IMG/VR virus record: IMGVR_UViG_3300027791_000009
Location: 55,870-119,869 of that record
Strand: one strand, 5' to 3'
From: a virus
DNA length: 64,000 bases
This document shows positions 10,156 to 57,245 of this stretch, piece by piece. The notes under the pieces were generated by a model, which ran no database searches, was not told the origin of the DNA, and saw only the letters and a list, made by a program, of their open reading frames with translations. The position numbers and the translations under genes are program-made. Position 1 is the first letter of the stretch. Every line of letters starts with the position of its first letter.

Positions 10156-10635
10156 ATGGACGAACAAACAATCTTATGGATTTCCAGATTAAAAGAAGAA
10201 ATCCAATCACACACTAGATACGAAGCAAGACAACTATTTTACATAGATGAAGAAGGACTTGACCGTGAGGTTAAAGACCATATGTCTTATGGAGAATGGA
10301 TAAGAGAGTACGATAGATTTAAAACTATTAAGGTGGAAGGCTTAGAAGATGTAGCCTGGTTAAAAGAAGTTTTAGACGAAGTAGTATTGAATATCACAGG
10401 AAAGAAAAGACAAGATATTCATTTATTTGTAAATCAGAAACCAGGTATTAGTTTTAAAGAACATAAAGATGATAAAGATGTTTACTTATATGTTGTCAAA
10501 GGCAAAAAGAAAGTATCTTTAGATGGTGTTATTAAACCAGTATATGATGATGAAGGAATATTCATAGAACAAGGTGTAAAACATTATGTTGAAAACGAAG
10601 CAGATACTTGGGGGTTAAGTATAGGAGTTATATAA
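10156..10635 (+). CDS. JmjC/cupin-like putative 2OG-Fe(II) oxygenase
   Basis: 159 residues, start chosen for the AAGGAGAT site nine bases upstream. Residues 93-159 resemble the double-stranded beta-helix of small JmjC/Cupin-type oxygenases: a 'PGISFKEHKDDKDVYLYVVKGKKKV' run places His103 and Asp105 as an HxD iron pair, and 'IEQGVKHYVEN' supplies His143 as the third ligand. In this family a 2-oxoglutarate-dependent enzyme hydroxylates a protein side chain. The N-terminal 90 residues are acidic and unrecognised. Its stop codon overlaps the ATG of the first radical SAM gene, so the two are probably translated together. A non-catalytic cupin is the alternative. Confidence 0.5.
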   Translation: MDEQTILWISRLKEEIQSHTRYEARQLFYIDEEGLDREVKDHMSYGEWIREYDRFKTIKVEGLEDVAWLKEVLDEVVLNITGKKRQDIHLFVNQKPGISFKEHKDDKDVYLYVVKGKKKVSLDGVIKPVYDDEGIFIEQGVKHYVENEADTWGLSIGVI

Positions 10636-11666
10636 TGAATTGGATGTTTTATTTAAAAACAACCGAAACCTGCAACTTGAATTGTAAACATTGTTTTACT
10701 TCAGGTTCAAATGGTCCTAAAGTCTATTGGAATCCAGATAAAACCATTAAGTGGTTACAAGATTTCAGAAAATACAATTTTCACAAACACGATACAGCAC
10801 ATTTAGAACTACACGGTGGCGAACCGTTTTTAGTTCCTGTGTCTGAAATGCAATATGTCTATGAGAACACAAAAGATTTGTGGATTCAACAATCAATGGG
10901 CATAACTTCTAACTTAACATTTAAACTAAAACAAGAACACATTGACTTCATTAAAGGTCCACTTAAAAATAGATGTGGAACTAGTTGGGATCCTAACATA
11001 AGATTTGCAAATGAGAAACAAGCAAACTTATGGCGTAAGAATGTAGAGACTTTAATTAGTGAAGGTGTTGATATTAAACTCTTCATATCAGTAACCAAAG
11101 ACACAATTAGAATTGAACCTATTGAATTACTTAAATGGGTTAAAGATTTAGGTGTAAAAGAAATGGCACTTGAAAGATTGACTGGAAATGGTAATGCAAA
11201 CTTGCATCCAGAGATATTTCCTAGAAATATAGAACAAGATAAGTGGTTTTTAAAAATGCACGAGCAATCTATTCAGTATAACACAAGAGATTGGTTTGAT
11301 AATGAGTTTTTTGAAACAATTTACTCAAAATTTGATACTGGTTCAACAAAAGAAGGCACTTTCTGCCGAGATTGTGAACAAAAACTATTTACACTTAACG
11401 CAACTGGCACAATAGGTGGTTGTCCTAATGCAGCTCCCGAGTTTAATTTTGGAACTATAGATGACCCTCTAGTAGAACTTATAAATAGTCCTAAGAGATT
11501 AGAAAATGTTGCTTGTGAAGTAGCAAGAAATCCTAAATGCTTTGAGTGTGAAGTATTTAAGTATTGTGGTGGCGATTGTCACCAATTAGCATGGCAAGAC
11601 GACATATGTGGCGCTCCTAAATCTCTTATGAAACACTTAAAAAAACAAAGTGAGGCGAAATGGTAA
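10635..11666 (+). CDS. Radical SAM enzyme with SPASM-like C-terminus (A)
   Basis: I place the start at 10635, in a TAATG overlap with the preceding gene and behind an AGGAG at 10623-10627, giving 343 residues; an ATG at 10608 has no ribosome site. Cys13-x3-Cys17-x2-Cys20 is the radical SAM cluster motif, and HGGEPF near residues 59-64 is the SAM-binding GGE motif. The C-terminus has two cysteine groups: GTFCRDCEQ with GGCPNA, then CFECEVFKYCGGDC...DICG, matching a SPASM domain that binds auxiliary iron-sulphur clusters. Such enzymes are typical maturases of ribosomally made peptides and of proteins (anaerobic sulfatase maturase type). The next gene, the CHxS-tailed protein, overlaps its end by seven bases, so it is a plausible substrate. 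Confidence 0.85.
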   Translation: MNWMFYLKTTETCNLNCKHCFTSGSNGPKVYWNPDKTIKWLQDFRKYNFHKHDTAHLELHGGEPFLVPVSEMQYVYENTKDLWIQQSMGITSNLTFKLKQEHIDFIKGPLKNRCGTSWDPNIRFANEKQANLWRKNVETLISEGVDIKLFISVTKDTIRIEPIELLKWVKDLGVKEMALERLTGNGNANLHPEIFPRNIEQDKWFLKMHEQSIQYNTRDWFDNEFFETIYSKFDTGSTKEGTFCRDCEQKLFTLNATGTIGGCPNAAPEFNFGTIDDPLVELINSPKRLENVACEVARNPKCFECEVFKYCGGDCHQLAWQDDICGAPKSLMKHLKKQSEAKW

Positions 11667-12433
11667 CTTTAAACAACCCGATAACAAGTCAAAATATAGT
11701 TGATAGATTTGAAGAACTGGTAACAGATGTAGCAGACCACCATATTGTATGGGGTACTGATAATCTACCAGGACACTCTTCATTTACTTCTGCTGATTTT
11801 GGTGGTGTTGTTGACGGATTTGAATTAACACTAACAGGTGTGACTGGAACTTATACAGCAGGTGAAACGGTTAACTCTACAATAACTGCAACAACTGGTA
11901 TCGTAGTTAGTTATTCTAGCAATGTATTAAAATTAAGAACAATTAATCCAGGTGCTGGTCAAACAGGATTCTTACAAAACGATATTATATCAGGCACTTC
12001 TTCAGGTGCTGTAGGTACGGTTAATACTTTAGCAGTAATAAGTGCTGTATCAATTGGTATCACAGGTTCTAATATCGGTAATGCAGGTTCAGTAATTACT
12101 GCAAACAATATTTACGGTACACTAAAAGCAGAAATGAATAATTATACTAATATCAAAAATACATACGCTATAGTTAGTATGACAGGTGCAGGAACACAAT
12201 ATTCGGATACACAAATTGCACACTTAACAACTGCACAAAGAACAACATTAAATCCATCACAACCTAGTAGTTTACAACCTGGTCAAACAATTGACGATAC
12301 AAATTTAGAATCGTTTATGTCGAGCCTTGCAAACGCATATTCTACTGAAAGAGGTAACACTTATACATTAACAAAAACTATATGTCATAGTAGCTGTCAT
12401 AGTAGTTGTCACGGAAGTAGAGGAAGAAGATAA
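11660..12433 (+). CDS. Virion-like protein with C-terminal Cys-His-x-Ser repeat; candidate radical SAM substrate
   Basis: 257 residues. The body is a Thr/Gly/Ser-rich, beta-rich structural sequence with units such as 'GTYTAGETVNSTITATTG' and 'ISGTSSGAVGTV' that recur in the baseplate and fibre proteins of this window. The last 16 residues are CHSSCHSSCHGSRGRR: three perfectly spaced Cys-His-x-Ser units (Cys242, 246, 250; His243, 247, 251) followed by a basic end. This resembles the His-Xaa-Ser tails of HxsA-type proteins, which accompany two radical SAM maturases. Here radical SAM genes lie immediately before and 1.8 kb after. It overlaps radical SAM gene A by seven bases and shares TAATG with the next gene. 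Modification of the tail is inference; metal binding by the unmodified tail is an alternative. Confidence 0.75.
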   Translation: MVTLNNPITSQNIVDRFEELVTDVADHHIVWGTDNLPGHSSFTSADFGGVVDGFELTLTGVTGTYTAGETVNSTITATTGIVVSYSSNVLKLRTINPGAGQTGFLQNDIISGTSSGAVGTVNTLAVISAVSIGITGSNIGNAGSVITANNIYGTLKAEMNNYTNIKNTYAIVSMTGAGTQYSDTQIAHLTTAQRTTLNPSQPSSLQPGQTIDDTNLESFMSSLANAYSTERGNTYTLTKTICHSSCHSSCHGSRGRR

Positions 12434-13098
12434 TGATTAATACTATTGTACCGATTGAATTGAAAGACTTAAAAAAATACTTTGAAGATAAGACAGAAAG
12501 TTATCTTATTGATTACGAAAACAGCACATTAAAAGGTGCTCAGTTTCTAACCTATTTAAGTAATTTAGATATACCTTGTGATATATTAAATATGGACGAA
12601 GAACTAATTAGTGAATATCTTAACACACAAATGTTAGTAAATATACCTAAATTAGAAAAAGAAATAATCGCTGTATTATTTGAACACAAGGGGTTGTCAA
12701 AGACAGATAAATATAAGAGTGTTATAGAAAAGAACAAAGAAATACTTGACAAGTGGGAAGGCAAATTAGAAAGTCTACCATTGTATAATATGTCAATCGT
12801 TGGTGAAGGTGCTTTTAATGAATTTGTTGAGAGTTATCCTAAAGACGAGACAGAAGATGTTAGAGGTATTAACTTTGTTTCATTATTAAAACACAAAGAA
12901 TTTTATAGTTATTATCAAATACAAAAAGAAGGTATTGTTAAGAACTATACGAAGTACTTTAAAGATTATATGTTTAAAGGTAAATCTTTATTTGAATATT
13001 GGGCGACAGAAAGTAATCCACTATTCTTAATGACTTGGGCAATTGCCGAAGGTAAATTTGATACAAAAGAATATTTAAAAGGTAAAGAGAAAAACTAA
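12433..13098 (+). CDS. Unknown protein of the radical SAM cluster
   Basis: 221 residues, Lys/Glu/Leu-rich, with no recognised domain and no membrane segment. It reads as a mainly helical soluble protein. The start codon overlaps the stop of the CHxS-tailed protein (TAATG), so the two should be made in matched amounts, which would suit a chaperone, a leader-recognition partner or an assembly factor of that protein. Those roles are inference from position only. Confidence 0.65.
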   Translation: MINTIVPIELKDLKKYFEDKTESYLIDYENSTLKGAQFLTYLSNLDIPCDILNMDEELISEYLNTQMLVNIPKLEKEIIAVLFEHKGLSKTDKYKSVIEKNKEILDKWEGKLESLPLYNMSIVGEGAFNEFVESYPKDETEDVRGINFVSLLKHKEFYSYYQIQKEGIVKNYTKYFKDYMFKGKSLFEYWATESNPLFLMTWAIAEGKFDTKEYLKGKEKN

Positions 13099-13099
13099 T

Positions 13100-14215
13100 A
13101 TGCTACACTTATTTAATAAAGTCTATTTAGCGTTTGACGATTCAATTGATTGTCATACAAACAGATATGTAATATCAGCAGAAACTGGTAATGAAATGCA
13201 CCAGGAACTGCAAACTACATACAGAGGAACTTTAATTAACTATTCACACAATGTTAATGCAATGGCAGGTAAGTATACTGACTTAACTGGTTTCTTTGAA
13301 GATGTAAAATTAAAACAAAGTACTCTAGGTACTAAAGTTATTATTTACTGCGATAGTGAAGCATACTTAAACTTATCAGTAACCTGGTTAAAAACTATGT
13401 TACCATTTGTTGACCAAACAGCAGTACAGAAGTTTTTAGATATTAATTTACACCACGAAAAAATTATTGCAAATACACAATTGCAACCTACTCACACGCT
13501 AGCGCTAACAAAAATTAATGCTGGTCTAGGAGATGTTGCAGGATATTTTAATGTATTACCTACACTTGATTTAGATAGAATTAAAGCTCTTAATTTAAAT
13601 TTCTCAATTGAATTATTATTAGGCGAATACTTTGCAGGTGCTGATACTCACCAAGCAAACTTATTGTCTACTTGGCATTTATTCTTAAAAAGATTTTATA
13701 AAGAAGTATTAACAGATAGTAGAGAAGGTGCTGCTCTAAATCTTTTGAATACTAATCAACAAACTGCATTAGGTTATACTAGTGATGATGTTGATTTAAA
13801 TAATGACAATCCATTTTCAGGTATTACACCATTAGCACCATTTGCTGACGAAGATGTATTTACGCAAAAACCTACTGCAAATGTAGGTGCTGTAAATATT
13901 GCAAACATTGACGGTCTTTCAACAGACAAACAAACTGCATTGAAAGCATTAATTAAAGACCTATATGATTTCCAAAACTCTCCGGATCCTGATTACTTTA
14001 TGAACCATTTAGATAAAGCTTGTGCTTCAAGTTTATCTTCTACTGACTTTGATACAATTATAACTGAAACCGTGAATAGTCCATCTAGTCTATCTTTTAT
14101 TCCTAGATTTGATATTGGAAATATTAATTATACATTTTTACAATATCTCTTCTCATTAAAGAAATCTAACGATACAGACAAACTAGGAAAATACAGACTA
14201 TTCGCAAACTCATAG
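13100..14215 (+). CDS. Unknown protein of the radical SAM cluster, possibly structural
   Basis: 371 residues starting two bases after the previous gene. The first 110 residues look folded and mixed (LFNKVYLAFDDSIDCHTNRYVI, then GTKVIIYCDSEAYLNL), the middle is helical, and the last third (FADEDVFTQKPTANVGAVNI onward) is less charged. No catalytic motif or known family is visible. It might be an adaptor joining the modified protein to the particle, or another substrate. A GGAG before 14224 separates it from radical SAM gene B. Confidence 0.6.
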   Translation: MLHLFNKVYLAFDDSIDCHTNRYVISAETGNEMHQELQTTYRGTLINYSHNVNAMAGKYTDLTGFFEDVKLKQSTLGTKVIIYCDSEAYLNLSVTWLKTMLPFVDQTAVQKFLDINLHHEKIIANTQLQPTHTLALTKINAGLGDVAGYFNVLPTLDLDRIKALNLNFSIELLLGEYFAGADTHQANLLSTWHLFLKRFYKEVLTDSREGAALNLLNTNQQTALGYTSDDVDLNNDNPFSGITPLAPFADEDVFTQKPTANVGAVNIANIDGLSTDKQTALKALIKDLYDFQNSPDPDYFMNHLDKACASSLSSTDFDTIITETVNSPSSLSFIPRFDIGNINYTFLQYLFSLKKSNDTDKLGKYRLFANS

Positions 14216-14223
14216 GAGTTTAA

Positions 14224-15276
14224 ATGCGAGAGTTTTTAATAGACCCCAAAAGAGACCCAGAGCAAGAGTACACTATTCATTTATTTGAATTTTGTAATTT
14301 GCGTTGTAATTTCTGTTGGCAGAACCACGACAATAAAATCGGTGTTGATAATGTGGTTGACAAACTTCCTTCTATAGAAAAATTTATCTCAAAAGAAATG
14401 TATATGAAGGTCACCTTTAATATTATGGGTGGCGAAGTCTTTGCACCTGCAATCTATAACAAAGATTTAAATGACGGATATAAACTTCTAGTAAAAGGCA
14501 TAAAAAAGATATGTCAAAAACACAATAAAGAATTTTCAATCAATTGGGTGTCTAACTTGGTTACCTCAGATGAAGGTAATGAACTTATTATGGACTTACT
14601 CACTTGGTCCAGAGAAGAAGATATACCTAGTAGACTTACAACAAGTTATGACCCACGAGGTAGATTTAATAAAAAAGACTTTGAGATATTTAAATCTAAT
14701 GTAGAATTTTGGGGTGATGAAGTAACCTGTTTTTCTTGTTTACTTACAAAGCCTAATATTAACTTTTATTTAAATGAAGGTGATGAATACTTTGACTATC
14801 TGTATAAACAAGGTAAGTATATTTACTTTGATTATTATATGCCAGATGAACACGCAAAGTTTAATATGCCTGGCGATGAACTATTATTAAAGTTTTTTAA
14901 ACATTGTGTTGACAAATATCCTAATGTTCATCCTGTTAGAGATTGGATATTTAACAAAAAGAATTATGCAAGTTGTAGAGTTTCAAAACTTGTATTAGCA
15001 GATGGTACATTATGTCAATGTGGTAACCTTGTACAAGAAGAACAAGATATAAGTCAATACAAGTCGCCCATTAAACCAAGAGACAATAGTATAATAGAAA
15101 ACTCTTTCCTAGAGAAGTATAATTGTAGTAGTTGTGAATTTTTAGATAGATGTACACTTGGCTGTTTTATGAACCATGATTATAGATACAAGGAGGAGTT
15201 GGATGAATGTGTTTACAAGCTTACGCACCGATATATCGAAGATGTACGAGTACAGCGAAACTATATCGCAAACTAA
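14224..15276 (+). CDS. Radical SAM enzyme with C-terminal cysteine clusters (B)
   Basis: 350 residues. Cys24-x3-Cys28-x2-Cys31 (FCNLRCNFCW) is the radical SAM motif and 'IMGGEVFAP' near residues 75-83 is the GGE-like SAM-binding motif. The C-terminus carries CRVSK, LCQCGN and CSSCEFLDRCTLGC followed by a later Cys, a SPASM/Twitch pattern for auxiliary clusters. It is only distantly similar to gene A outside these motifs, so the cluster was not made by a recent tandem duplication. The next gene starts inside it, 74 bases before its end. Peptide or protein modification is the likely role; the substrate is not known. Confidence 0.85.
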   Translation: MREFLIDPKRDPEQEYTIHLFEFCNLRCNFCWQNHDNKIGVDNVVDKLPSIEKFISKEMYMKVTFNIMGGEVFAPAIYNKDLNDGYKLLVKGIKKICQKHNKEFSINWVSNLVTSDEGNELIMDLLTWSREEDIPSRLTTSYDPRGRFNKKDFEIFKSNVEFWGDEVTCFSCLLTKPNINFYLNEGDEYFDYLYKQGKYIYFDYYMPDEHAKFNMPGDELLLKFFKHCVDKYPNVHPVRDWIFNKKNYASCRVSKLVLADGTLCQCGNLVQEEQDISQYKSPIKPRDNSIIENSFLEKYNCSSCEFLDRCTLGCFMNHDYRYKEELDECVYKLTHRYIEDVRVQRNYIAN

Positions 15277-15835
15277 ATTAGGCTATAATTTTCCTAAACA
15301 TATCGAAGTACAACTAGATTACTTTCCTGTTGAGAAACCATATCTTCCTAGAATAGATGGTAGACGAGCACATATGTTTTTATGGTTAGGCAAGAAAGAA
15401 GAGGATCCTGAACTATACGAGATTGCACAAAAAACAAAAGGTGAGAGACAATGGGTTCAAAATGGTACGCCTAGCACTTATATTAAGGGCGTAGGTATGT
15501 TTCATATCTATAATGAGTATGTTATAGTCGGTTCTTTAAAATATGCAGGATACATGAAGAACAGACCTCCAACAGAAAACAGAAAACTAATTAGACAAAT
15601 GTGGTGTGATACGATAAACATATTTAAAGGTAGAGATATATTATGTCCGTCTGGTACTTACTTTGATTGGTTACACCTGACAATGAATCAAATGAGAGCA
15701 CAGAAAGAACCATATCATAGAGAAATAATGTGGCAGTTTGGTTTTGACAAAGTTAAAGAAGGTAAACTAAAAGATTACTGGATTAGAAATAAAGAATCTA
15801 CTACAGGATTGAACTGGATAGGAAAATGGATTTAA
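15203..15835 (+). CDS. Unknown protein of the radical SAM cluster
   Basis: I place the start at 15203 because AGGAGG at 15191-15196 lies six bases upstream; the ORF could open at 15176 but no ribosome site supports that. The product is 210 residues, aromatic and basic, with a compact segment 'GTPSTYIKGVGMFHIYNEYVIVGSLKYAGYM' and a conserved-looking 'GTYFDWLHLTMNQMR'. I recognise no family or catalytic motif. It begins 74 bases inside radical SAM gene B and overlaps radical SAM gene C by ten bases, tying its expression to both; a partner or substrate-recognition subunit is possible. Confidence 0.65.
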   Translation: MNVFTSLRTDISKMYEYSETISQTKLGYNFPKHIEVQLDYFPVEKPYLPRIDGRRAHMFLWLGKKEEDPELYEIAQKTKGERQWVQNGTPSTYIKGVGMFHIYNEYVIVGSLKYAGYMKNRPPTENRKLIRQMWCDTINIFKGRDILCPSGTYFDWLHLTMNQMRAQKEPYHREIMWQFGFDKVKEGKLKDYWIRNKESTTGLNWIGKWI

Positions 15836-16920
15836 TAATTAAACCTACTGAACTTTGTAATTTCAAATGCTCATTTTGTTCTAGTACGCAGCTTACAGAT
15901 GAGAAAAAGAACTGGTTAAAACATGACCAGATATTTCGTTTTTTAGAAAGATTCCCAGAAACAAAAACAATCATAGTAAATGGTGGTGACCCATTAATGA
16001 TGGAACCTAATTACTATTGGAAGATTATTGATTGGTTAGATGAAAGAGAATATACTACTTCACTTGCATTAACGACAAACTTATGGCCGTTCTATAAGAA
16101 ACCTAGTAAGTGGGTTGACTTATTTAATAACGAAAGAGTTGGTATCACAACTTCTTTTCAATATGGTGGTGGTAGATTAAAAGGTGACTATTCTGAATTT
16201 ACAGAAGAGGACTTTTATAAGTGTTCAGACGCAATGTTAGAACATTGTGGTTATAGACCAGACTTTATATCCGTTATTACAAGAGAGAATGAACACAACG
16301 CAATAAAGAATGTTGAACTTGCAAAGAAGATGTCCGAACAGAAAATACCTGAAGGCACATTACATAACTTCTGGAGAGAAGAGAAGACAGGTGTAGAATG
16401 TAAATTGAATTATGCAATGGCAAGTGGCGAACAAAAAGAGCCGTTTTTGTTATCAGATATATATGAGAAGTATGTAGAGATTTATAAGGCAGGTCTAGCA
16501 CCTTGGGAGTTTAATACTAGACAGATGATGTTAGCAATAAATGATACTGCTACAAGTTGTCCGTTAAGTAGAAAATGTGATGAAGGTATAAGATGTTTAC
16601 AACCAGATGGTGACTACTATAGTTGTGGTGCATTTGGTGATGATAAAGACAAAGCGATAGACTTTGAAGAAGAAATGAAAGGTAAGTTTTTTACACCTTT
16701 ACAAGATGACTTAAATTTATCTACAATGAAGAAAAGTTGCTATAGTTGTCCTATGTTTAACATATGTAATGGTTGTAGAAAGACCGTGAAAGATTATAAA
16801 GAGGCAGGAGTTGTAGAGAAACATTGTGAGAAGATGAAAAGAATTGGAAAAGATATTTTGGTTGCAAATAATAAATCACATATAGAAATGACACCTTATG
16901 AGAGAGAATATGTTAGTTAA
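15826..16920 (+). CDS. Radical SAM enzyme with SPASM-like C-terminus (C)
   Basis: 364 residues. Cys11-x3-Cys15-x2-Cys18 (LCNFKCSFCSS) is the cluster motif, and 'VNGGDPLMM' near residues 51-59 is the GGD/E motif. Later cysteines occur as SCPLSRKCDEGIRCLQPDGDYYSCGAF and CYSCPMFNICNGC...KHC, a full SPASM arrangement. The 'D/E...PDG..Y.CG' context before the last cysteines is typical of SPASM proteins acting on peptides. It overlaps its upstream neighbour by ten bases, and the downstream oxygenase begins inside its last 23 bases, so an oxygenase and a radical SAM enzyme are again directly coupled, as at 10156-10635. Confidence 0.85.
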   Translation: MDLIIKPTELCNFKCSFCSSTQLTDEKKNWLKHDQIFRFLERFPETKTIIVNGGDPLMMEPNYYWKIIDWLDEREYTTSLALTTNLWPFYKKPSKWVDLFNNERVGITTSFQYGGGRLKGDYSEFTEEDFYKCSDAMLEHCGYRPDFISVITRENEHNAIKNVELAKKMSEQKIPEGTLHNFWREEKTGVECKLNYAMASGEQKEPFLLSDIYEKYVEIYKAGLAPWEFNTRQMMLAINDTATSCPLSRKCDEGIRCLQPDGDYYSCGAFGDDKDKAIDFEEEMKGKFFTPLQDDLNLSTMKKSCYSCPMFNICNGCRKTVKDYKEAGVVEKHCEKMKRIGKDILVANNKSHIEMTPYEREYVS

Positions 16921-17362
16921 GAATAATGTAATGACAAGTTTAGAACTCAATCATATGATTGCTGAACTAGGTAATCTAGGTAAAGAATATCCTATCTATG
17001 AGAAGAATGTTCACAAGAAATTACCAGACGACTGGAATTGGGTAGATAGTATTTGTAAATTAAATGTACCTGACATAAAACATTGTATTGTTAGATATGT
17101 TATTTCTGTAAATAGTAAAAACGAAGAAAAGAATATTATAGGTTTTCATACAGACAGCGATGTAAAAGGAGAGAAGACTATTATATTATATCTACAAGGT
17201 GATTTAAATAAAGGTGGACAAATACAAGTTGAAGATAAGACATATGACTTTAGACAAAACGCAATGTTTATTATGGACTCTCATTTAGTACATAGGGCAA
17301 TGCCTTATTGGGGAGAAAAGACAAGACTTGCAATTAAATGGAGATGGACAAGTGAGGGGTGA
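16898..17362 (+). CDS. 2OG-Fe(II) oxygenase (prolyl-4-hydroxylase-like)
   Basis: 154 residues counted from ATG 16898; in-frame ATGs at 16910 and 16931 are also possible because no site is decisive. The HxD...H...R pattern is clear: 'GFHTDSD' gives His84 and Asp86, 'LVHRAMPYWGEKTRLAIKWRW' gives His132 and the 2-oxoglutarate-binding Arg143. The intervening 'TIILYLQGDLNKGGQIQV' is the family's central beta hairpin. Such enzymes hydroxylate protein side chains or small substrates. It overlaps radical SAM C upstream and the next oxygenase downstream. Confidence 0.75.
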   Translation: MRENMLVKNNVMTSLELNHMIAELGNLGKEYPIYEKNVHKKLPDDWNWVDSICKLNVPDIKHCIVRYVISVNSKNEEKNIIGFHTDSDVKGEKTIILYLQGDLNKGGQIQVEDKTYDFRQNAMFIMDSHLVHRAMPYWGEKTRLAIKWRWTSEG

Positions 17363-17873
17363 ACACGATTTATCAAATCTGGTAATAAATGGAGTGTGGC
17401 CACATAAAGACCTTGCACCATTTAAATTCTTTGAAGGTATACAAATACCTTTTGTAGAAACAGATAAAGAGTATACGATTGCTGTACATACTGAAAAGGT
17501 AGCACACGCACTCGCCACAACCCACAAATATTTGGGTGATAAATATATTAGTAAGGTGTCTAGTAAATACGAATTACACGGACGACCAAACATTGTCAAT
17601 GGTGTAGACTATGAAAGTACACTATGGCACAATGACTTGAAAGAAGGAGCTAACATTGCTATACTAATGTACTTTACAAATGCCTGTAATGAAGAACAAG
17701 GTGGTTCTTTATCAGTAAGACATAAACAAACAAAGTCATTGTCTTGTTGGTTATATCCAGGTAAGAACGATTTAATATTTTTAAATCATAGTAAAGTATG
17801 GGAACACAAAGTTGGTAAATTTAAATTAATTAACAATGAACGAATTGTAGGATGTTTTAATTATAATATATGA
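17352..17873 (+). CDS. 2OG-Fe(II) oxygenase
   Basis: The frame opens at a TTG (17328), but I prefer GTG 17352, which has GGAG at 17340-17343 and overlaps the upstream gene by 11 bases; this gives 173 residues. The motif is 'LWHNDLKEG' (His93, Asp95), then 'NACNEEQGGSLSV', then 'VWEHKVGKFKLINNERIVGCF' supplying His152 and Arg164, the iron ligands and 2-oxoglutarate anchor. Phage enzymes of this shape are common in marine T4-like genomes, with targets mostly unknown. Two adjacent oxygenases of different sequence suggest different sites or substrates. Confidence 0.75.
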   Translation: MRGEHDLSNLVINGVWPHKDLAPFKFFEGIQIPFVETDKEYTIAVHTEKVAHALATTHKYLGDKYISKVSSKYELHGRPNIVNGVDYESTLWHNDLKEGANIAILMYFTNACNEEQGGSLSVRHKQTKSLSCWLYPGKNDLIFLNHSKVWEHKVGKFKLINNERIVGCFNYNI

Positions 17874-18430
17874 AAAATAAAAAATTTGAAAACGGCAGAA
17901 TACACGCCTCACAAGAACAAGATTTAGATTATTCAAATGGGTATCTAGCTCTATCAGTAAGTCCATTTGACAAAGACTTTGACATTGAAGTTGAGAAAGG
18001 TGTATTACCTCATTGCCATGAATTTATTAGAAAAGGTTTTCTTCCAATATCAAGTTGCGAAGGACATTTTACAAAGAAACACCATATGCCATTTTATATA
18101 ATGTTGGCGTTAGGTGGTAAAAACAAATTAGATAGAATAACAGATATCATTAATAAAACAAAACATATATCTGGTATATCATATAAAATAAAAGAACAAC
18201 AAGCAAATGTAAAGGGTGAACTATTAGAACGAGTAGATTACACTTTAGATAAAGAACAAGAGTATGCTGAACTGAATAGATTGTTTATGAGAAATCATAT
18301 TGACTATCATTATCTATGGATAGGACTATTTGAAAAAGAAACAATTTTAAGAAATATTTTGTTTAGTAGAAGTAAAAGAATGTTATTAAAGTCTATTGAG
18401 GAATTGAATTATGACGAAGCGGAAAATTAA
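17870..18430 (+). CDS. Unknown protein with a SSCEGH motif
   Basis: 186 residues, starting in an ATGA overlap with the preceding oxygenase. A central motif 'PHCHEFIRKGFLPISSCEGHF' (residues about 44-64) groups Cys and His residues in a way that could bind a metal or act as a nucleophile; it recalls the SSC motif of TYW3-like proteins, but the resemblance is too short to name a family. The C-terminal third is helical and basic. Function unknown. Confidence 0.6.
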   Translation: MKNKKFENGRIHASQEQDLDYSNGYLALSVSPFDKDFDIEVEKGVLPHCHEFIRKGFLPISSCEGHFTKKHHMPFYIMLALGGKNKLDRITDIINKTKHISGISYKIKEQQANVKGELLERVDYTLDKEQEYAELNRLFMRNHIDYHYLWIGLFEKETILRNILFSRSKRMLLKSIEELNYDEAEN

Positions 18431-19382
18431 TCTATCAATCAATCCATCTTATTTTTGTAATTTTAGATGTAATTGGTGTTATCTTACGCCTGACCAATTA
18501 GGTGATAATAAATGTATTGACCACTTTAAATTAAGTGAACTATTAAATGAAGTACAAACTCATAGAGACATAGAACACATTGATTTATATGGTGGTGAGA
18601 TAGGTGTATTAAAAGAAGACAACCTAGAAAAGATTACTAACGCAATTAAGATATATTACAAAGACAAGATTAATATAAACACAAACTTATCTATGGTAAG
18701 AAGTGAGTTTATGAATCCTGATTATTTTATAAGTGTTAGTTATGATATGGAGACCAGAGAGAAACACGAACAAGTTTATGATAATATGAGAACTTTGCCT
18801 GTTGAGTTTTCTGTTTTAATGTTGGCAACACCAGAAGTTATGAAAATATCAACACAAAGTATTTGGTCAAAGATGATTAAATTAGGTGTAGATAATAAAA
18901 ACTTTAAAGGATTTGAAATTAAACCTTATAGTACAAATCAAGCAAATCAATTAGGTGCGACACACGCTGACTTTGAAGACTTTATAATAAAGATGATAGA
19001 AGAATTTAAAAGTGTAAAAACAAGAGAAGGATATCAGCAAAATAAATTTGCATTTATTAATGAAGAGAACATAAAAGATTCTCTTAATCATCAATACAAC
19101 GCATATAGTGATGACCACTTATATATTACACCTAATGGTAAATTTGCTGTATTAGATTTTGATAAAGATGATAATGAGTATTTTTTAGAACTTGATAGTT
19201 TTGCTGATTACGAAGTATGGTGTCAAAAAGAGAAAGAACAAAATATTTCTGATATATGTCGTAAGTGTGAATATTTAGGTAGATGTTTAACTGAACACTA
19301 TAGATATGTTAAAACTCTAAAAGATGGTTGCAATGGATATAGGTATCTGTTAGATACTTATAGTTTTAGATATGGCAAATAG
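18411..19382 (+). CDS. Radical SAM enzyme with Twitch-like C-terminus (D)
   Basis: 323 residues. Cys16-x3-Cys20-x2-Cys23 (FCNFRCNWCYL) is the radical SAM motif, followed by 'DLYGGEIGVL' near residues 62-71, the SAM-binding GGE. The C-terminus has a shorter set of cysteines, ICRKCEYLGRC then DGCNGYRY, consistent with one auxiliary cluster. The radical SAM start lies 20 bases before the end of the previous gene. It is the last and shortest of the four enzymes. All four share only the core motifs, so each may do a separate chemical step. Confidence 0.85.
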   Translation: MTKRKINLSINPSYFCNFRCNWCYLTPDQLGDNKCIDHFKLSELLNEVQTHRDIEHIDLYGGEIGVLKEDNLEKITNAIKIYYKDKININTNLSMVRSEFMNPDYFISVSYDMETREKHEQVYDNMRTLPVEFSVLMLATPEVMKISTQSIWSKMIKLGVDNKNFKGFEIKPYSTNQANQLGATHADFEDFIIKMIEEFKSVKTREGYQQNKFAFINEENIKDSLNHQYNAYSDDHLYITPNGKFAVLDFDKDDNEYFLELDSFADYEVWCQKEKEQNISDICRKCEYLGRCLTEHYRYVKTLKDGCNGYRYLLDTYSFRYGK

Positions 19383-38315: not shown

Positions 38316-38323
38316 TATAAATA
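38316..38323 (+). promoter_or_regulatory. T4-type late promoter TATAAATA upstream of the pigment operon
   Basis: Exact late box directly after the fibre stop. It is the only promoter I see before the heme-oxygenase operon at 38375, so that operon is probably expressed late. The predicted transcript start, near 38328, lies just before the hairpin at 38335-38349. Confidence 0.7.
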
Positions 38324-38334
38324 ATTATATATTA

Positions 38335-38350
38335 AGACCGTAAGGTCTTT
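38335..38350 (+). terminator. Short GC-rich hairpin, terminator or 5' leader stem
   Basis: AAGACC and GGTCTT pair around a GTAA loop, followed by only a short T run (TTT then A). GNRA-type GTAA loops are frequent in phage terminators and in stabilising leader stems. It lies about seven bases into the predicted late transcript, so it may protect that mRNA's 5' end or stop readthrough from the fibre gene. Confidence 0.5.
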
Positions 38351-38374: not shown

Positions 38375-39190
38375 ATGAAGAGAATAGAAGAATTTGTTGA
38401 ACAGGCTCGTAAAAAGTTTGAATCACAACCGTTCGTTAACGACTATCTAAACAAGAAACTTAAATACAAAGAATCTGTTGGTACTTATTTGTACAATCAA
38501 TGGGTCTATGTATGTCAAATAGAAGGACATTGCAAAGACGCAGGTGTACTTGACGGTATTGAAGAAATTTGTATTAAAGAAAATCTACTAGAAGCGTGGA
38601 AAGCAGAATGGCCTTATGACGCTGATGATATATCAAAAACTTGGATAGAACCATCTGTAATGTATGCAACGCAAAATTGGTGTACTTCTATTATAGATGT
38701 TAAAGAAGATAAAGATTTATTACTCGCACACCTTTACGCCTCTCATAGTGAGATAATGACTAATCAAGGTACTTCAATTCTCAAAGATAGACTTACAGAA
38801 AAATTTACAGAAGCCTACAATCGTAGACCAGACGAAATACTTAATATTATAAAATTAAGTTGGGACTTTAAAATTGGTATGTCTGGCGATTTAGAAGCAC
38901 ACACCGAACATTTAGAAGAAGTCTTACCTAGAATTTCTTTATTCAAAGTTGCCGCCAAAGAAATAAGTGAAGACAGGTCAGGTTTAAATGATATGTCTGG
39001 TGGTGAAAGAGACGAAACAGAAGACCAAAAAATAAGAGCAGAATTAATGGCAAATTCAGTCTTTGTAGGTGAAATGAATTTAGATGAAGTGCCAGAAGAT
39101 TATCAAAGTTTTGTAAAAGAAGACTTACATCAACTTGAACAAAAGAAAAAAGAGACTGAAAAAACATTTGAAGAAGCTCCTAAAAGATGA
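38375..39190 (+). CDS. Heme-oxygenase-like paralogue lacking the heme ligand
   Basis: 271 residues behind TTGAGGTG. Residues 4-135 align by eye to the true heme oxygenase next door: 'QPFV' (18-21) with QQFV, then 'YLYNQ' one residue out of register, then 'LLLAHLYASHSEIMTNQG' with 'KIAAHIYVRHMGDLSGGQ'. The proximal His12 of heme oxygenase falls on Arg12 here and the distal Gly-Gly is missing, so heme cleavage is unlikely. The C-terminal about 70 residues are acidic and helical (ending EKKKETEKTFEEAPKR style), absent in the neighbour. It overlaps heme oxygenase by four bases. It may be a structural partner, bilin carrier or regulator; a TenA-like enzyme is an alternative. Confidence 0.6.
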   Translation: MKRIEEFVEQARKKFESQPFVNDYLNKKLKYKESVGTYLYNQWVYVCQIEGHCKDAGVLDGIEEICIKENLLEAWKAEWPYDADDISKTWIEPSVMYATQNWCTSIIDVKEDKDLLLAHLYASHSEIMTNQGTSILKDRLTEKFTEAYNRRPDEILNIIKLSWDFKIGMSGDLEAHTEHLEEVLPRISLFKVAAKEISEDRSGLNDMSGGERDETEDQKIRAELMANSVFVGEMNLDEVPEDYQSFVKEDLHQLEQKKKETEKTFEEAPKR

Positions 39191-39843
39191 AGACATTAAA
39201 AGAATTAACTTGGGAACATCATAAAGAAGCAGAAAGACAACAATTTGTAAAAGTATTAATGTCTGGAAAGATATTAGAAGAAGTTTACGCTGTTTATCTT
39301 TACAATCAACATCAAGCATATAATATATTAGAAGCAGTCGCAATGTCGGAAGGTTTCTTTGATGATATGCCACAATTAAGAAGAGCGCCAGAAATCTTAA
39401 AAGATTTTAATGAACTATGGACTTGGGACCATAAACCTTGGTTATGTGAGAGTACTAAAAAGTACATAGACCATTGTCAAACATTAATGGATTCTCCAGA
39501 GAAAATAGCTGCACATATATATGTAAGACATATGGGTGATTTATCAGGTGGGCAGATGATTAGAAGAAAGACACCAGGTCGTAATTATTATTATGATTTC
39601 AATTTTAAAAAAGTTGATGACGGTGTACAGAAATATAAAAGTGTACAAGAATTAAAAGACGCATTAAGATTAAAAGTGGATAGTTATCAAAAGTATTCAG
39701 ACGCAAGTACACTTACAGAAAATGTAAATAATGTTGTATACGAAGCAAGAGTTTGTTTTAGTTTTGCAACGGAACTATTTAAAGAAATGATGACATTTAT
39801 TAATAACAATGAAAAGAGGTTTGGTGATGGAACGAAGAAGTAG
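39187..39843 (+). CDS. ho1: Heme oxygenase
   Basis: 218 residues, the usual length of bacterial heme oxygenase. It opens 'LKELTWEHHKEAERQQFV', with His12 as the proximal heme ligand by comparison with cyanobacterial 'AHTMAEN'. The distal helix is 'RHMGDLSGGQ' (Asp118, Gly121, Gly122), the motif that lets heme oxygenase open heme to biliverdin IX-alpha, CO and iron using reduced ferredoxin. It starts in an ATGA overlap and its end overlaps the bilin reductase start, so its product would pass to that enzyme. All key residues are present. Confidence 0.9.
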   Translation: MKTLKELTWEHHKEAERQQFVKVLMSGKILEEVYAVYLYNQHQAYNILEAVAMSEGFFDDMPQLRRAPEILKDFNELWTWDHKPWLCESTKKYIDHCQTLMDSPEKIAAHIYVRHMGDLSGGQMIRRKTPGRNYYYDFNFKKVDDGVQKYKSVQELKDALRLKVDSYQKYSDASTLTENVNNVVYEARVCFSFATELFKEMMTFINNNEKRFGDGTKK

Positions 39844-40528
39844 AATATGGGAAATGCTTGAGCAACACACTCAAAGTATTATCGCAAATTTTGAAAGAGA
39901 AGGTGAAGAGATATTTGAACCTGCAATGAAAAAGTTTAATAGACCTGAAGAAGGTTGGGTTAATAGAGTATGGAAAACACCTGAAGCAAGAAGATGTCAT
40001 TTAGATGTAGTTGACGCTAGAGACGAAAAAGGTTTGTTTATGTTTCATTGCTGTGTGTTTCCTAATCTAACAAGTGAAGCACCTATATTTGGATTAGATG
40101 TAATCGCAGGTGCAAAAAAGGTTACAGGTTTCTTCCACGACTTTTCTCCTCTTGCAAAGAGAGACCATTCAATGGTAGATTGGTTTGTAAAAGAAGCAAG
40201 TAATTATACACCATCAAAAGCAAGACCATTACCTGATTGGGCTATGAAAATCTTTAGTCCAGGTATGATTGCGGCTGGTAATATTAATACTGAAAAAGAA
40301 TTAACACAAGCGTTAAGTATGGCACAAGCAAATTTACAAGTATACTTTACACTACTAAGAAGAAACAACGAAGTAGGAGACTTACAGGAAATCAAAGACG
40401 CACAAAACAGATACGCAAAACATCAAAGAGAGAATCCACATACTCCTAGAGTTATGTTAAGTTTAGGTTTACCTGAAGATGATGTAAAAGAATTTTGTAC
40501 AGACGCTTTATTTCCTTATGTGGAATAA
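39827..40528 (+). CDS. pcyX: Ferredoxin-dependent bilin reductase, PcyX-type
   Basis: I start at 39827, seven bases after AGAGG; an upstream ATG at 39809 is less well placed. The 233 residues match the ferredoxin-dependent bilin reductase family: 'RRCHLDVVDARDEKGLFMFHCCVFP' and 'APIFGLDVIAGAKKVTGFFHDFSP'. Compared with Synechocystis PcyA, His74 and Asp91 sit at the positions of His88 and Asp105, while Asp60 replaces Glu76. That exchange and the PcyA-like core are features of the viral PcyX group, which makes phycoerythrobilin from biliverdin in a four-electron reaction. PebS is the other phage option. The ALAS start overlaps its stop. Confidence 0.8.
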   Translation: MERRSRIWEMLEQHTQSIIANFEREGEEIFEPAMKKFNRPEEGWVNRVWKTPEARRCHLDVVDARDEKGLFMFHCCVFPNLTSEAPIFGLDVIAGAKKVTGFFHDFSPLAKRDHSMVDWFVKEASNYTPSKARPLPDWAMKIFSPGMIAAGNINTEKELTQALSMAQANLQVYFTLLRRNNEVGDLQEIKDAQNRYAKHQRENPHTPRVMLSLGLPEDDVKEFCTDALFPYVE

Positions 40529-41721
40529 TGGAACATTTAGATAAATTTAAAAAAATAATAACAGAATTAAAAGCTGACGGTAGATACCGTGTATTCAATG
40601 ATATCTTACGAACCAGAGGTAGTTATCCTAACGCAATCTGGTATTCAAAATACTCAATCAAAAAAATAGTCAACTGGTGTTCAAATGATTATCTAGGCAT
40701 GGGCCAACATTCTTATGTTATAGATAGCATGAAAACAGCACTGGAGACGAGCGGAGCGGGTGCTGGAGGGACGAGAAACATCTCCGGTACAACTCACTAT
40801 CACATTGCATTAGAACACGAATTAACTCAATTACACGACAAAGAAAGTGCGTTATTATTCACTTCAGCATACAACGCTAATCAAACAACTTTAGAAACTA
40901 TGGGCAAGATTATGCCTGAAATTTTATTTATTTCAGACGCCGAAAATCATTCTTCTATCATACAAGGATTAAGACATAGTAAATGTAAAAAAGAAATATT
41001 TAAACATAATGATTTAGACGATTTAGAAAGTATCTTAAAGTCTAACCCTGGTCCTAAATGTGTAGTATTTGAAAGTGTCTATAGTATGGACGGAGATATT
41101 GCACCTGTAAAAGAGATTGCTGATTTATGTAAAAAGTATAAAGCTATATCGTACATTGATGAAGTACACGGAGTTGGTTTATACGGACCAAAAGGTGCTG
41201 GTATTTGTGAACGAGATAATGTTGATGTTGATATTATTAATGGAACATTAGCAAAGGCCTATGGTGTACAGGGAGGTTACATTTGTGGAAAGAGAGAGTT
41301 TATAGACGCAATTAGAAGTATGGCAAGTGCGTTTATATTTACAACTAGTTTATCGCCTGTACTATGTGCCGGTGCTTTAACAAGTATTAAGTATGTTAAA
41401 GACCATCCAGAATTAAGAGAACAACTACAAGAACGAGCTCAAAAAACAAAAGAAGAATTAACAAGACAAGGTATAGAAGTATTACAAAACGATAGTCATA
41501 TCGTACCAGTAATTATAGGTGACGCTAAAAAATGTAAAGCAGTTTCAGATGAATTACTTTACAAAGATGGTATCTATGTACAACCTATTAACTATCCTAC
41601 GGTTGCTGTTGGTACTGAAAGACTAAGATTTACACCTACACCATTTCATACAGATATGATGATATTTGATATGGTAGTTAAAGTTAAATCTGCTATGCGA
41701 AGATGTGGTAAAACTAAATGA
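40528..41721 (+). CDS. hemA: 5-Aminolevulinate synthase
   Basis: 397 residues from ATG 40528, which overlaps the preceding TAA (TAATG); the longer frame from 40495 lacks a ribosome site. It is a class II PLP enzyme: 'WCSNDYLGMGQH' near residues 50-61, 'GAGAGGTRNISGT.HYH' near 79-95, 'YIDEVHGVGLYG' with Asp211, and 'GTLAKAYGVQGGYI' with Lys243 as the PLP lysine. Those segments match 5-aminolevulinate synthase rather than the related KBL, AONS or SPT enzymes. It joins glycine and succinyl-CoA to give 5-aminolevulinate, the first step of heme synthesis by the Shemin route. A GC-rich island covers 40741-40788. Confidence 0.9.
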   Translation: MEHLDKFKKIITELKADGRYRVFNDILRTRGSYPNAIWYSKYSIKKIVNWCSNDYLGMGQHSYVIDSMKTALETSGAGAGGTRNISGTTHYHIALEHELTQLHDKESALLFTSAYNANQTTLETMGKIMPEILFISDAENHSSIIQGLRHSKCKKEIFKHNDLDDLESILKSNPGPKCVVFESVYSMDGDIAPVKEIADLCKKYKAISYIDEVHGVGLYGPKGAGICERDNVDVDIINGTLAKAYGVQGGYICGKREFIDAIRSMASAFIFTTSLSPVLCAGALTSIKYVKDHPELREQLQERAQKTKEELTRQGIEVLQNDSHIVPVIIGDAKKCKAVSDELLYKDGIYVQPINYPTVAVGTERLRFTPTPFHTDMMIFDMVVKVKSAMRRCGKTK

Positions 41722-41912
41722 ATGTAAAAGAAGAACTTGATTGGTTAATAAGTGATGGTGCAAATGGTTTAGAAATCTTATTGTTTCTATTACGATACGA
41801 CACAACTATACAAAGTTTGATAGGTATAGGGGTGTTATTTGTACTAGTATGTTGGTATTTTGATAAAAAAGACGATAAAGACACGAAATGGGACATCGAC
41901 CCTCATGGATAA
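41718..41912 (+). CDS. Small membrane protein
   Basis: 64 residues, starting in an ATGA overlap with the ALAS stop. A single membrane segment near residues 33-49 ('SLIGIGVLFVLVCWYF') is followed by a charged tail (DKKDDKD) that would be cytoplasmic. The N-terminal part is a short amphipathic helix. No family recognised. As the last gene of the pigment operon it could anchor those enzymes to the membrane, or be an unrelated small gene; a late promoter follows immediately. Confidence 0.6.
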   Translation: MNVKEELDWLISDGANGLEILLFLLRYDTTIQSLIGIGVLFVLVCWYFDKKDDKDTKWDIDPHG

Positions 41913-41913
41913 T

Positions 41914-41921
41914 TATAAATA
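41914..41921 (+). promoter_or_regulatory. T4-type late promoter TATAAATA
   Basis: Exact late box 25 bases before ATG 41947, with an AAAGGAAT ribosome site. It drives the neck and terminase genes. Confidence 0.75.
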
Positions 41922-44424: not shown

Positions 44425-45057
44425 ATGAACAAAGAAGAAATAATAGTATTAGACAATGTTTTACCAGAAGTCGTAAATAACAGCTTTCAACAAAACATTA
44501 CAAGACTAGCATATATCCTATCTATGGATATCCTACCAAATCAAGTAGACAATAAAGGCATTGTAAAAGATGATAATACATTTTCGTCTACACAAATGGT
44601 ACACAGAGTTTTTTTACACAATCAACCTCAAAAAGGACCTCAAAATCCTGCCATTGAACCTATAAGACATTCATTATCTGAAATGGTTGGCAAAGCAGGA
44701 CTACTTACAAAAGAGTTTGATAAGGTAGAAATGTTAAGAGCAAAATTTAATTTAATGTTTCCACATCCTGATTTCAAAGATGGTAAATATAATATGGCTC
44801 ATGTTGATGATGAAGACGAAGAACATATGGTTTGCATTTACTATCCAACAGATACAGATGGTGATACTATATTGTTTAATGAGTTTTTTAGTAAAGATAA
44901 GAAACCAGAAACACTAAGTATTGCTAAGAGAGTTAAACCAAAAGCAAATCGTTGCGTAATATTTCATGGTTGGAGATTTCACGCAAGTAGTAATCCAGTT
45001 AAATCTAATAGTAGAATAGTTTTAAATACAAACTTCAAGGTCGTAAACAATGGGTAA
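44425..45057 (+). CDS. 2OG-Fe(II) oxygenase between neck and terminase genes
   Basis: 210 residues, starting behind GAGAGG. The iron motif is 'MAHVDDED' (His126, Asp128) and 'FHASSNPVKSNSRIVLN' (His186, Arg197 as the 2-oxoglutarate anchor), with 'CIYYPTDTDGDTILFNEF' between. Similar oxygenases sit beside head or tail genes in marine T4-like phages, but their substrate is not known. It overlaps gp16 by eight bases, so it is made together with the packaging proteins. Confidence 0.75.
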   Translation: MNKEEIIVLDNVLPEVVNNSFQQNITRLAYILSMDILPNQVDNKGIVKDDNTFSSTQMVHRVFLHNQPQKGPQNPAIEPIRHSLSEMVGKAGLLTKEFDKVEMLRAKFNLMFPHPDFKDGKYNMAHVDDEDEEHMVCIYYPTDTDGDTILFNEFFSKDKKPETLSIAKRVKPKANRCVIFHGWRFHASSNPVKSNSRIVLNTNFKVVNNG

Positions 45058-45538
45058 ACTAGAAGACAAAGTAAATGATATTTTAGGTATCAAAGAAGAG
45101 AGTACTCCTGTAGCAGAATTAATGTTGCAAGAGAAGTCTGTACCTGTACCTAGAGTTGAAGACCCAAAGAAAGACGATATAGAAAACGATTACAAATATA
45201 GTAGAGAAAATTACTATAATTTAATTGAACGAGGACAAGACGCAATACAAGGCATTTTAGATGTTGCAAAAGAAGGGCAACACCCAAGAGCATATGAAGT
45301 CGCAGGTGCATTAATTAAAAATGTAGCCGACACCGTTGATAAATTACAAGACTTACAAAGTAAATTATCTAAACTAAAAGATGTACCGAATAAGACAACT
45401 AATAACATTAAGAATGCTTTGTTTGTAGGTTCAACTGCTGAACTACAAAAACATTTAAAGGACAAAAAGTTTGATGAACAACCAAGAGACATATCAAACG
45501 ACCCCTTTAAAGATACACCAATTGAAGGAAAAGATTAA
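45050..45538 (+). CDS. 16: Small terminase subunit gp16
   Basis: 162 residues, the T4 gp16 size. 'LEDKVNDILGIKE' opens it, and the core 'DYKYSRENYYNLIERGQDAIQGILDVAKEGQHPRAYEVAGALIKNVADTVDKLQDLQ' is the gp16 coiled-coil helical pair. It binds concatemeric DNA and activates gp17. The gene sits directly before gp17. Confidence 0.85.
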   Translation: MGKLEDKVNDILGIKEESTPVAELMLQEKSVPVPRVEDPKKDDIENDYKYSRENYYNLIERGQDAIQGILDVAKEGQHPRAYEVAGALIKNVADTVDKLQDLQSKLSKLKDVPNKTTNNIKNALFVGSTAELQKHLKDKKFDEQPRDISNDPFKDTPIEGKD

Positions 45539-56177: not shown

Positions 56178-57245
56178 ATGTTAAAACTCTTAACAAATAT
56201 TCGTTATTTCATTGCACCAATATTAATCATCACTACTGCTTACGGTATCCACATAGGTGGTCTATTTGCGTGGACTGGTGTTGCTTTATTAGGTGTTGGA
56301 ATAATAATAGATACATTAATCACATACCAAACTAAAGGTGCTGGGGTTGATGGAAATGGAGACTCATTAGGTATTGCGTGGTTGCAAAACAGCGTTATGT
56401 ATTTAATGTTACCTGTTTTCTTAATCCTACAATTAGTTGTCGCTTACAAACTCTTTAACGGAGTGGGTGGCATGGAGTTAGTTGGTACAACATTATCTGC
56501 TGGTATCTTTTTAGGTATCGGTATCATATATGGACACGAACTATCTCATACAAAAGGTGGGTCATTTGTAATAAGTAGATGGATGATGGCGTTAAGTGGG
56601 TCAGCACATTTTTGCTATGCTCATGTATACAATCATCATTTAGAACTTGCAAGTGAAGATGACCCAGCGACTGCACCTCGTGGTCGTACAATATACGGAC
56701 ATTATCTATTGTCTTATCTTGGTCAATCAAAGTTTCTTTTTGAAATGGAGAAAGCAAGATTAAGTAGAATAGGTAAATCTTTTATCAGTTTTGATAACAG
56801 ATGGATAAGAGGATATCTTATGTCTGTACCTATAGTAAGTTTATTCTTTATGGCAGGTGGTTGGACAGGTGTTGCTGTATTAGCAACAATGTGGGTTATC
56901 TCAAACTTTGAGTTAGAAGCATTGAACTACCTAGAACACTACGGTTTAATAAGAGTAAAAAATCAACCAATAGATTATCGACACAACTGGGATAACTCAA
57001 CATTATTCACAAGTTGGTTCTTCATTGAAATTGGTCGTCAAGCAGACCACCACGATAGAGGTGAAACACACTTCTGGGAACTTGATGATGTCGGTGCTCC
57101 TAATACTGGTGTTGGTTACTTTACACTTTTCACTATTGCGTTAATACCACCATTGTTTAATAAGTTTATGAAAAAACATTTAGACAAATGGGATAGTGAT
57201 TATGCAAGTGCTGACGAGATTAAAATAGCACAAAAACTAGTATAA
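56178..57245 (+). CDS. alkB: AlkB-type alkane/fatty-acyl hydroxylase
   Basis: 355 residues, shorter than the usual about 400. The N-terminal 115 residues are hydrophobic membrane segments. The histidine boxes of membrane di-iron hydroxylases are all there: 'GHELSH' (His120, His124), 'HVYNHH' (His149, His153, His154), 'NYLEHYGL' (His254, the AlkB-specific motif) and 'QADHHDRGETH' (His291, His292, His298). 'EDDPATAPRG' after box 2 also matches AlkB. Box 2 lacks the usual Glu and Gly (EHxxGHH). AlkB inserts oxygen at a terminal methyl group using rubredoxin, none of which is encoded here, so a host rubredoxin would be needed. It has its own promoter and terminators. GGAGG precedes the ATG. Confidence 0.85.
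   Translation: MLKLLTNIRYFIAPILIITTAYGIHIGGLFAWTGVALLGVGIIIDTLITYQTKGAGVDGNGDSLGIAWLQNSVMYLMLPVFLILQLVVAYKLFNGVGGMELVGTTLSAGIFLGIGIIYGHELSHTKGGSFVISRWMMALSGSAHFCYAHVYNHHLELASEDDPATAPRGRTIYGHYLLSYLGQSKFLFEMEKARLSRIGKSFISFDNRWIRGYLMSVPIVSLFFMAGGWTGVAVLATMWVISNFELEALNYLEHYGLIRVKNQPIDYRHNWDNSTLFTSWFFIEIGRQADHHDRGETHFWELDDVGAPNTGVGYFTLFTIALIPPLFNKFMKKHLDKWDSDYASADEIKIAQKLV

What the first reader, a model, noticed from the sequence alone, without database searches (positions are those of the whole stretch)
38375..41912. Operon joining Shemin-pathway ALAS, heme oxygenase and a PcyX-type bilin reductase in one phage
Seen: overlapping genes 38375-41912 with all key residues in HO (His12, GDLSGG), the bilin reductase (His74, Asp91) and ALAS (Lys243, Asp211). 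Known: phage bilin genes (PebS, PcyX) and phage Shemin genes have been reported in aquatic viral sequences, so each part is not new; the co-location with a second HO-like gene and a small membrane protein may be. Inference: the phage pushes carbon from glycine and succinyl-CoA towards biliverdin and phycoerythrobilin in an alphaproteobacterial host that makes heme by this route.
Basis: partly seen in the sequence, partly recalled or inferred. Interest (0 to 1): 0.72.

Follow-up and report, generated by a model that had tools for sequence, protein, structure and literature searches.

The report
Phage bilin operon with inactive heme oxygenase
An ocean virus of bacteria, related to viruses of the abundant SAR11 group, carries a known set of pigment genes (make ALA, open heme, reduce biliverdin) and, always with it, an undescribed heme-oxygenase look-alike that has lost its catalytic residues; the set is mostly known, the companion protein is new and testable.

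Summary
38375-41912 holds five overlapping genes: a heme-oxygenase-like protein (ORF1), heme oxygenase (HO), a PcyX-type bilin reductase, 5-aminolevulinate synthase (ALAS) and a 64-aa membrane protein. T4-type late promoters (TATAAATA) sit just before and after the set and are conserved in most relatives. The HO-PcyX-ALAS cassette is already published (Wegner et al. 2024, PMC11480375), with activity shown for a freshwater homologue, so the core is not new. What I did not find described is ORF1: an HO-fold paralogue (Z 17) in which the heme-ligand His is an invariant Arg and the distal catalytic Asp an invariant Ile. It occurs in 28 IMG/VR contigs, always directly before HO, under purifying selection: a phage pseudo-HO. 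Trees show ORF1, HO and reductase inherited together, but ALAS moving independently between phages, often overlapping a small membrane-protein gene. The closest cultured phage, Mosig (host SAR11), lacks ALAS and ORF1. ORF1's function is inferred, not shown.

The parts
38316..38323 (+). T4-type late promoter TATAAATA, 52 nt before ORF1
   Evidence: intact in 11 of 13 relatives compared; 14 copies on +, 0 on - strand of the window, 9 of 14 just before a gene (P 4e-9)
38334..38349 (+). leader stem-loop AAGACC-GTAA-GGTCTT right after the late promoter
   Evidence: -9.3 kcal/mol for the leader, z -2.1; pairing kept with changed sequence in relatives (GACC/GGTC, GACTT/AAGTC, AACCT/AGGTT); weak evidence on its own
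38375..39190 (+). ORF1: HO-fold protein without HO catalytic residues (pseudo-heme-oxygenase), 271 aa, with a charged C-terminal extension
   Evidence: HO fold; Arg12 in place of proximal His, Ile127 in place of distal Asp, Glu126/Asn130 in place of Gly, all invariant in 10 copies; dN/dS 0.18-0.47
39187..39843 (+). heme oxygenase, 218 aa, catalytic His12 and GDLSGG intact
39827..40528 (+). PcyX-type ferredoxin-dependent bilin reductase, 233 aa (Asp60 = PcyX Asp55, His74, Asp91)
   Evidence: (best solved match PcyX 5owg, E 4.7e-77)
40528..41721 (+). 5-aminolevulinate synthase, 397 aa (Lys243 PLP lysine; R. capsulatus His342 replaced by Lys; Cys393 at about the Cys400 position)
41718..41912 (+). 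small membrane protein with one predicted helix, 64 aa, ATGA overlap with ALAS
   Evidence: 13 aligned homologues, invariant DG..GL..L core; no Pfam/PHROG/NCBIfam match
41914..41921 (+). T4-type late promoter TATAAATA of the following neck gene (41947); closes the cassette
   Evidence: conserved in all loci compared, with or without the cassette

Best explanation
This is a late-expressed operon of overlapping auxiliary metabolic genes in a T4-like marine phage. ALAS makes 5-aminolevulinate from glycine and succinyl-CoA; the host turns it into heme; the phage HO opens heme to biliverdin (releasing Fe and CO); the PcyX-type reductase, using host ferredoxin, makes phycoerythrobilin. ORF1 is a duplicated HO that has lost catalysis and most likely works as a heme- or biliverdin-binding partner of the active HO and reductase (carrier, product sink or regulator). 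The small membrane protein is linked to ALAS, not to the HO part. Shown here: gene content, residues, fold of ORF1, conservation, operon borders, co-inheritance. Known from published work on homologues: activities of vALAS, vHO and PcyX/PcyA. Inferred: flux direction, the ORF1 ligand, the role of the membrane protein, and the benefit to the phage.
For: Families and residues. ORF1 as HO-fold pseudoenzyme. ORF1 always directly before HO in 28 contigs and absent from 57 other phage HO+reductase loci; its tree matches the HO tree. Operon borders: two conserved late promoters. Pathway logic: heme synthesis consumes one iron and HO gives it back, so ALAS+HO together yield bilin and CO with no net iron; and in the one ORF1 lineage without ALAS next to it (L062-L065) the reductase has lost catalytic Asp residues and its C-terminus while HO and ORF1 are kept, as if ALAS and reductase serve one purpose.
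Against: No expression or activity data for this phage. No ferredoxin gene found in the 119,869-base record, so the reductase would depend on the host. No known use of phycoerythrobilin in SAR11 (own knowledge). The four contigs behind the ALAS/reductase co-loss look like one phage type, so this is a single event. ORF1's ligand is untested; loss of the His may equally mean loss of tetrapyrrole binding.
Confidence: 0.6

Rival explanations
1. Iron release: the HO frees iron from host heme late in infection for iron-using phage proteins (2OG-Fe oxygenases, possibly tail parts); biliverdin reduction is only disposal.
For: The cassette is late and lies between tail-fibre-like and neck genes; 2OG-Fe(II) oxygenases are encoded nearby (Mosig has several at this place); L062-L065 keep HO+ORF1 with a broken reductase.
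Against: Making new heme through ALAS consumes the same iron, so an ALAS-HO pair gains none; elsewhere the reductase is under strong constraint (dN/dS mostly near 0.1).
Confidence: 0.2
2. ALAS is an independent heme-supply gene (supports host respiration during infection) that merely landed next to an HO-reductase pair.
For: ALAS occurs alone or away from HO in other phages, and its tree does not follow HO and reductase; Wegner et al. favour a supply role.
Against: In this lineage the five genes overlap between two late promoters and stay together in 24 contigs, so they are probably made together.
Confidence: 0.3
3. ORF1 is a decaying HO copy without function.
For: Long branch, 37-57% identity between sublineages, higher dN/dS than its neighbours.
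Against: Open in all full-length copies; dN/dS 0.18-0.47, below 1; the replacing residues themselves (Arg12, Glu126, Ile127, Asn130) are invariant; a conserved C-terminal extension.
Confidence: 0.07

Closest known systems
Phage hemO-pcyA/X-valaS three-gene cassette (Wegner et al. 2024, PMC11480375)
   Same: Same three enzymes in marine Mosig-like (pelagiphage) and freshwater phages; heme-feedback site of ALAS partly lost; PcyX-specific Asp
   Different: That paper's text mentions neither an HO-like fourth gene, nor the small membrane gene, nor late promoters (figures not seen)
Pelagibacter phage Mosig EXVC030M (MT647606)
   Same: HO+reductase at the same place before the neck gene; capsid 80%, terminase 73% identical
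   Different: No ALAS match, no ORF1 match; ferrochelatase and 2OG oxygenases instead
PcyX (PDB 5owg)
   Same: E 4.7e-77, nearly full length, same Asp/His/Asp catalytic set
   Different: Activity of the window copy not tested
Inactive HO homologues Arabidopsis HO2 and Plasmodium PfHO (PMC11634067)
   Same: HO relatives without the His ligand; Arabidopsis HO2 has the same His-to-Arg change
   Different: Those are chloroplast or apicoplast proteins; this one is phage-encoded and paired with an active HO in one operon
Bradyrhizobium ORS278 hemO-pcyA-alaS island
   Same: Same three activities together (as reported in PMC11480375)
   Different: Phytochrome gene nearby, PcyA rather than PcyX, no pseudo-HO mentioned

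Membership tests
5-aminolevulinate synthase | score above curated ALAS cut-off and below AONS/KBL cut-offs | tested here: met
   TIGR01821 567 > 338.55; bioF 329.6 < 426.45; glycine C-acetyltransferase 322.8 < 460
5-aminolevulinate synthase | PLP lysine and substrate-site motifs conserved | tested here: met
   Lys243, Asp211, GGTRNISGTT and PTV motifs aligned with R. capsulatus ALAS
[quoted passage not shown]
   shown for the CB_2 phage homologue in PMC11480375
PcyX bilin reductase | Asp at PcyX position 55 (Glu76 in PcyA), His88- and Asp105-equivalents | tested here: met
   Asp60, His74, Asp91
PcyX bilin reductase | product is phycoerythrobilin | not testable with these tools
   assay needed
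heme oxygenase (39187-39843) | proximal His and GDxSGG distal helix | tested here: met
heme oxygenase (ORF1) | HO fold | tested here: met
   Z 17.2, 2.5 A over 170 residues
heme oxygenase (ORF1) | proximal His ligand | tested here: not met
   Arg12 invariant; aligns with phage HO His12, and the range puts it at HO-1 His25
heme oxygenase (ORF1) | distal catalytic Asp and Gly residues | tested here: not met
   GDLSGG replaced by EI(M/H)xN
hemO-pcyX-valaS cassette | three adjacent genes in a Mosig-like phage | tested here: met

The most novel reading that the evidence does not exclude
Phages have turned a duplicated heme oxygenase into a non-catalytic heme- or bilin-binding protein that partners the active HO and PcyX; to my knowledge this would be the first viral pseudo-HO, and one paired with its active twin in the same operon.
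Probability: 0.4. Interest if true: 0.68.

Novelty: new variant of a known kind. Interest (0 to 1): 0.47.

Why it matters
Why phages of non-photosynthetic bacteria make bilins is an open question. A conserved non-catalytic HO twin in the same operon is a ready-made handle: its ligand would say whether heme, biliverdin or phycoerythrobilin is what the phage needs. The separate movement of ALAS together with small membrane proteins gives a second handle.

Tried and rejected
ORF1 as a bilin-associated globin: rejected, it has the HO fold. ORF1 in cellular genomes: no match in the species genomes by pattern scan, which only reaches fairly close relatives. ORF1 against PDB sequences: nothing, the fold search was needed; Foldseek alone gave E of only 1.6e-3. 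Cellular origin of ALAS: the single-protein scan returned only two distant hits (32-36% identity), so the bacterial source was not tested here; Wegner et al. report about 55% identity to Pelagibacteraceae. Phage records matching ALAS in the annotated collection look like bacterial KBL/AONS genes, some labelled so. Ferrochelatase and ferredoxin not found in the record. No Rfam element. DUF454: no clear literature link to heme. Hairpins of 6 or more pairs are common in random segments of this AT-rich window (38%), so the leader stem-loop rests on conservation only.

Full report
WHAT IS THERE. The window is the last 64 kb of a 119,869-base IMG/VR record. Five + strand genes run from 38375 to 41912 with overlapping ends: ORF1 (271 aa), HO (218 aa), bilin reductase (233 aa from the ATG at 39827), ALAS (397 aa) and a 64-aa membrane protein. 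They lie between a large RCC1-repeat gene among tail-fibre-like genes and the neck genes. Structural proteins are closest to Pelagibacter phage Mosig (capsid 80%, terminase 73%), then to Methylophilales phage Melnitz (74%, 64%) and Pelagibacter phage HTVC008M.

THE ENZYMES. HO matches Pfam Heme_oxygenase (1.9e-21) and keeps His12 and GDLSGG. The reductase matches solved PcyX over nearly its full length (E 4.7e-77); the PcyX-specific Asp55, whose absence Wegner et al. use to explain why the phage CB_2 enzyme is a PcyA, is present as Asp60 (PcyA has Glu76 there), with His74 and Asp91. ALAS scores 567 bits against its curated cut-off of 338.55, while AONS and KBL models stay below theirs; the PLP lysine and substrate motifs align with R. 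capsulatus ALAS. The R. capsulatus heme-feedback residue His342 is Lys here; a Cys lies at about the Cys400 position, so only one of the two feedback residues is clearly gone.

ORF1. No family library recognises it (sub-threshold noise only). A profile of ten homologues aligns with the phage HO profile at E 4.5e-15, the ORF1 profile finds phage HOs at about 1e-6 to 1e-15 and the HO profile finds ORF1 at 1e-6, and the predicted structure (mean pLDDT 77, most of the core above 80) superposes on algal HO-2 and human HO-1 with Z 17.2 and 17.0, 2.5 A over about 170 residues, above TenA-type relatives at about 14.6. The aligned range starts at model residue 1 and HO-1 residue 14, which puts Arg12 at the heme-ligand His25. 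Arg12, Glu126, Ile127 and Asn130, which replace the ligand His, the distal Gly, the catalytic Asp and another Gly, are invariant in ten copies down to 37% identity. Pairwise dN/dS is 0.18-0.47, looser than ALAS (about 0.1) but below 1. Arabidopsis HO2 has the same His-to-Arg change and no detectable HO activity, and Plasmodium PfHO lacks the His and has another, essential role (PMC11634067); human HO-1 H25R, the engineered version, has been solved with biliverdin bound (5btq, listed). This makes a ligand-binding, non-catalytic role plausible, but it is inference.

DISTRIBUTION. ORF1 is found in 28 IMG/VR contigs, each with HO directly downstream; 24 of them also have ALAS next to the reductase, and four (L062-L065, alike, probably one phage type) have ORF1-HO-reductase followed by the neck gene with no ALAS or membrane gene between. 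In the copy examined (L062) the reductase has Lys and Ser at two catalytic Asp positions and a truncated C-terminus, while HO keeps its residues. 57 other phage HO+reductase loci have no ORF1. The HO list was cut at 80 loci, so this is a sample.

HISTORY. ORF1 and cassette HO each form one supported group with largely matching subgroups, and the reductases do too. ALAS does not: ALAS of the 'broken cassette' phages, whose HO and reductase are Mosig-like, nests inside the cassette ALAS (supports 98/96 and 99/98). So ORF1-HO-reductase travelled together and ALAS moved separately among phages. In most lineages the ALAS stop overlaps the next gene: this membrane protein (cassette phages and L040), a DUF454 membrane protein (L039, L108, L114), an A-type Fe-S carrier (L024, L030), or unrelated phage genes.

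EXPRESSION. TATAAATA, the T4 late promoter consensus (own knowledge), occurs 14 times on + and never on - in the window; 9 of 14 lie 25-64 nt before a gene start (binomial P 4e-9). One is 52 nt before ORF1 and one 26 nt before the neck gene, bracketing the cassette; the first is intact in 11 of 13 relatives compared, the second in all loci compared. A stem-loop follows the first; its sequence changes but pairing persists, though hairpins are common by chance here.

MECHANISM. The simplest reading is a route from glycine and succinyl-CoA through host heme to phycoerythrobilin, made late in infection. Because ALAS-driven heme synthesis uses the iron that HO releases, the full set cannot be a net iron source; bilin or CO is the more likely product of interest. 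This step is reasoning, not data.

COMPARISON. The enzyme cassette is that of Wegner et al. 2024, who also showed activity of homologues. I did not find ORF1, the membrane gene or the promoters in that paper's text, but its Figure 2 and supplements were not available, so the genes may be drawn there without comment. No phage in the annotated collection has a match to ORF1 or the membrane protein.

VERDICT. Observation confirmed; core already known; a conserved phage pseudo-HO is the new part.

Noticed in passing
window 38316, 41914 and 12 other sites: T4-type late promoters TATAAATA, all on the + strand, most just before genes.
   Followed up: yes
window 38334-38349: Leader stem-loop after the late promoter with pairing kept by changed sequences in relatives.
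   Followed up: partly
L039:7212-7634, L108:3322-3741, L114: DUF454 (YbaN) membrane protein gene overlapping the stop of phage ALAS; A-type Fe-S carrier next to ALAS in L024, L030, L040.
   Followed up: partly
L062:8429-9034 (same in L063-L065): Bilin reductase that has lost two catalytic Asp residues and its C-terminus, in a lineage without ALAS next to it.
   Followed up: partly
window 10608-19379: Cluster with at least four radical-SAM proteins (weak Pfam scores), a 2OG oxygenase and many unassigned genes.
   Followed up: no
window 56178-57242: Fatty acid desaturase gene between the capsid and UvsY genes.
   Followed up: no
L037:1276-1926 and window 45050-45538: HO of L037 ends in NDPFKGTSIEGKD, nearly the same tail as the window's terminase-small-subunit-like protein (NDPFKDTPIEGKD); a shared C-terminal tag or a recombination scar.
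   Followed up: no
L052 (Mosig) 4910-5680: Mosig has a putative ferrochelatase near its HO+reductase pair; none found in the window's record.
   Followed up: partly
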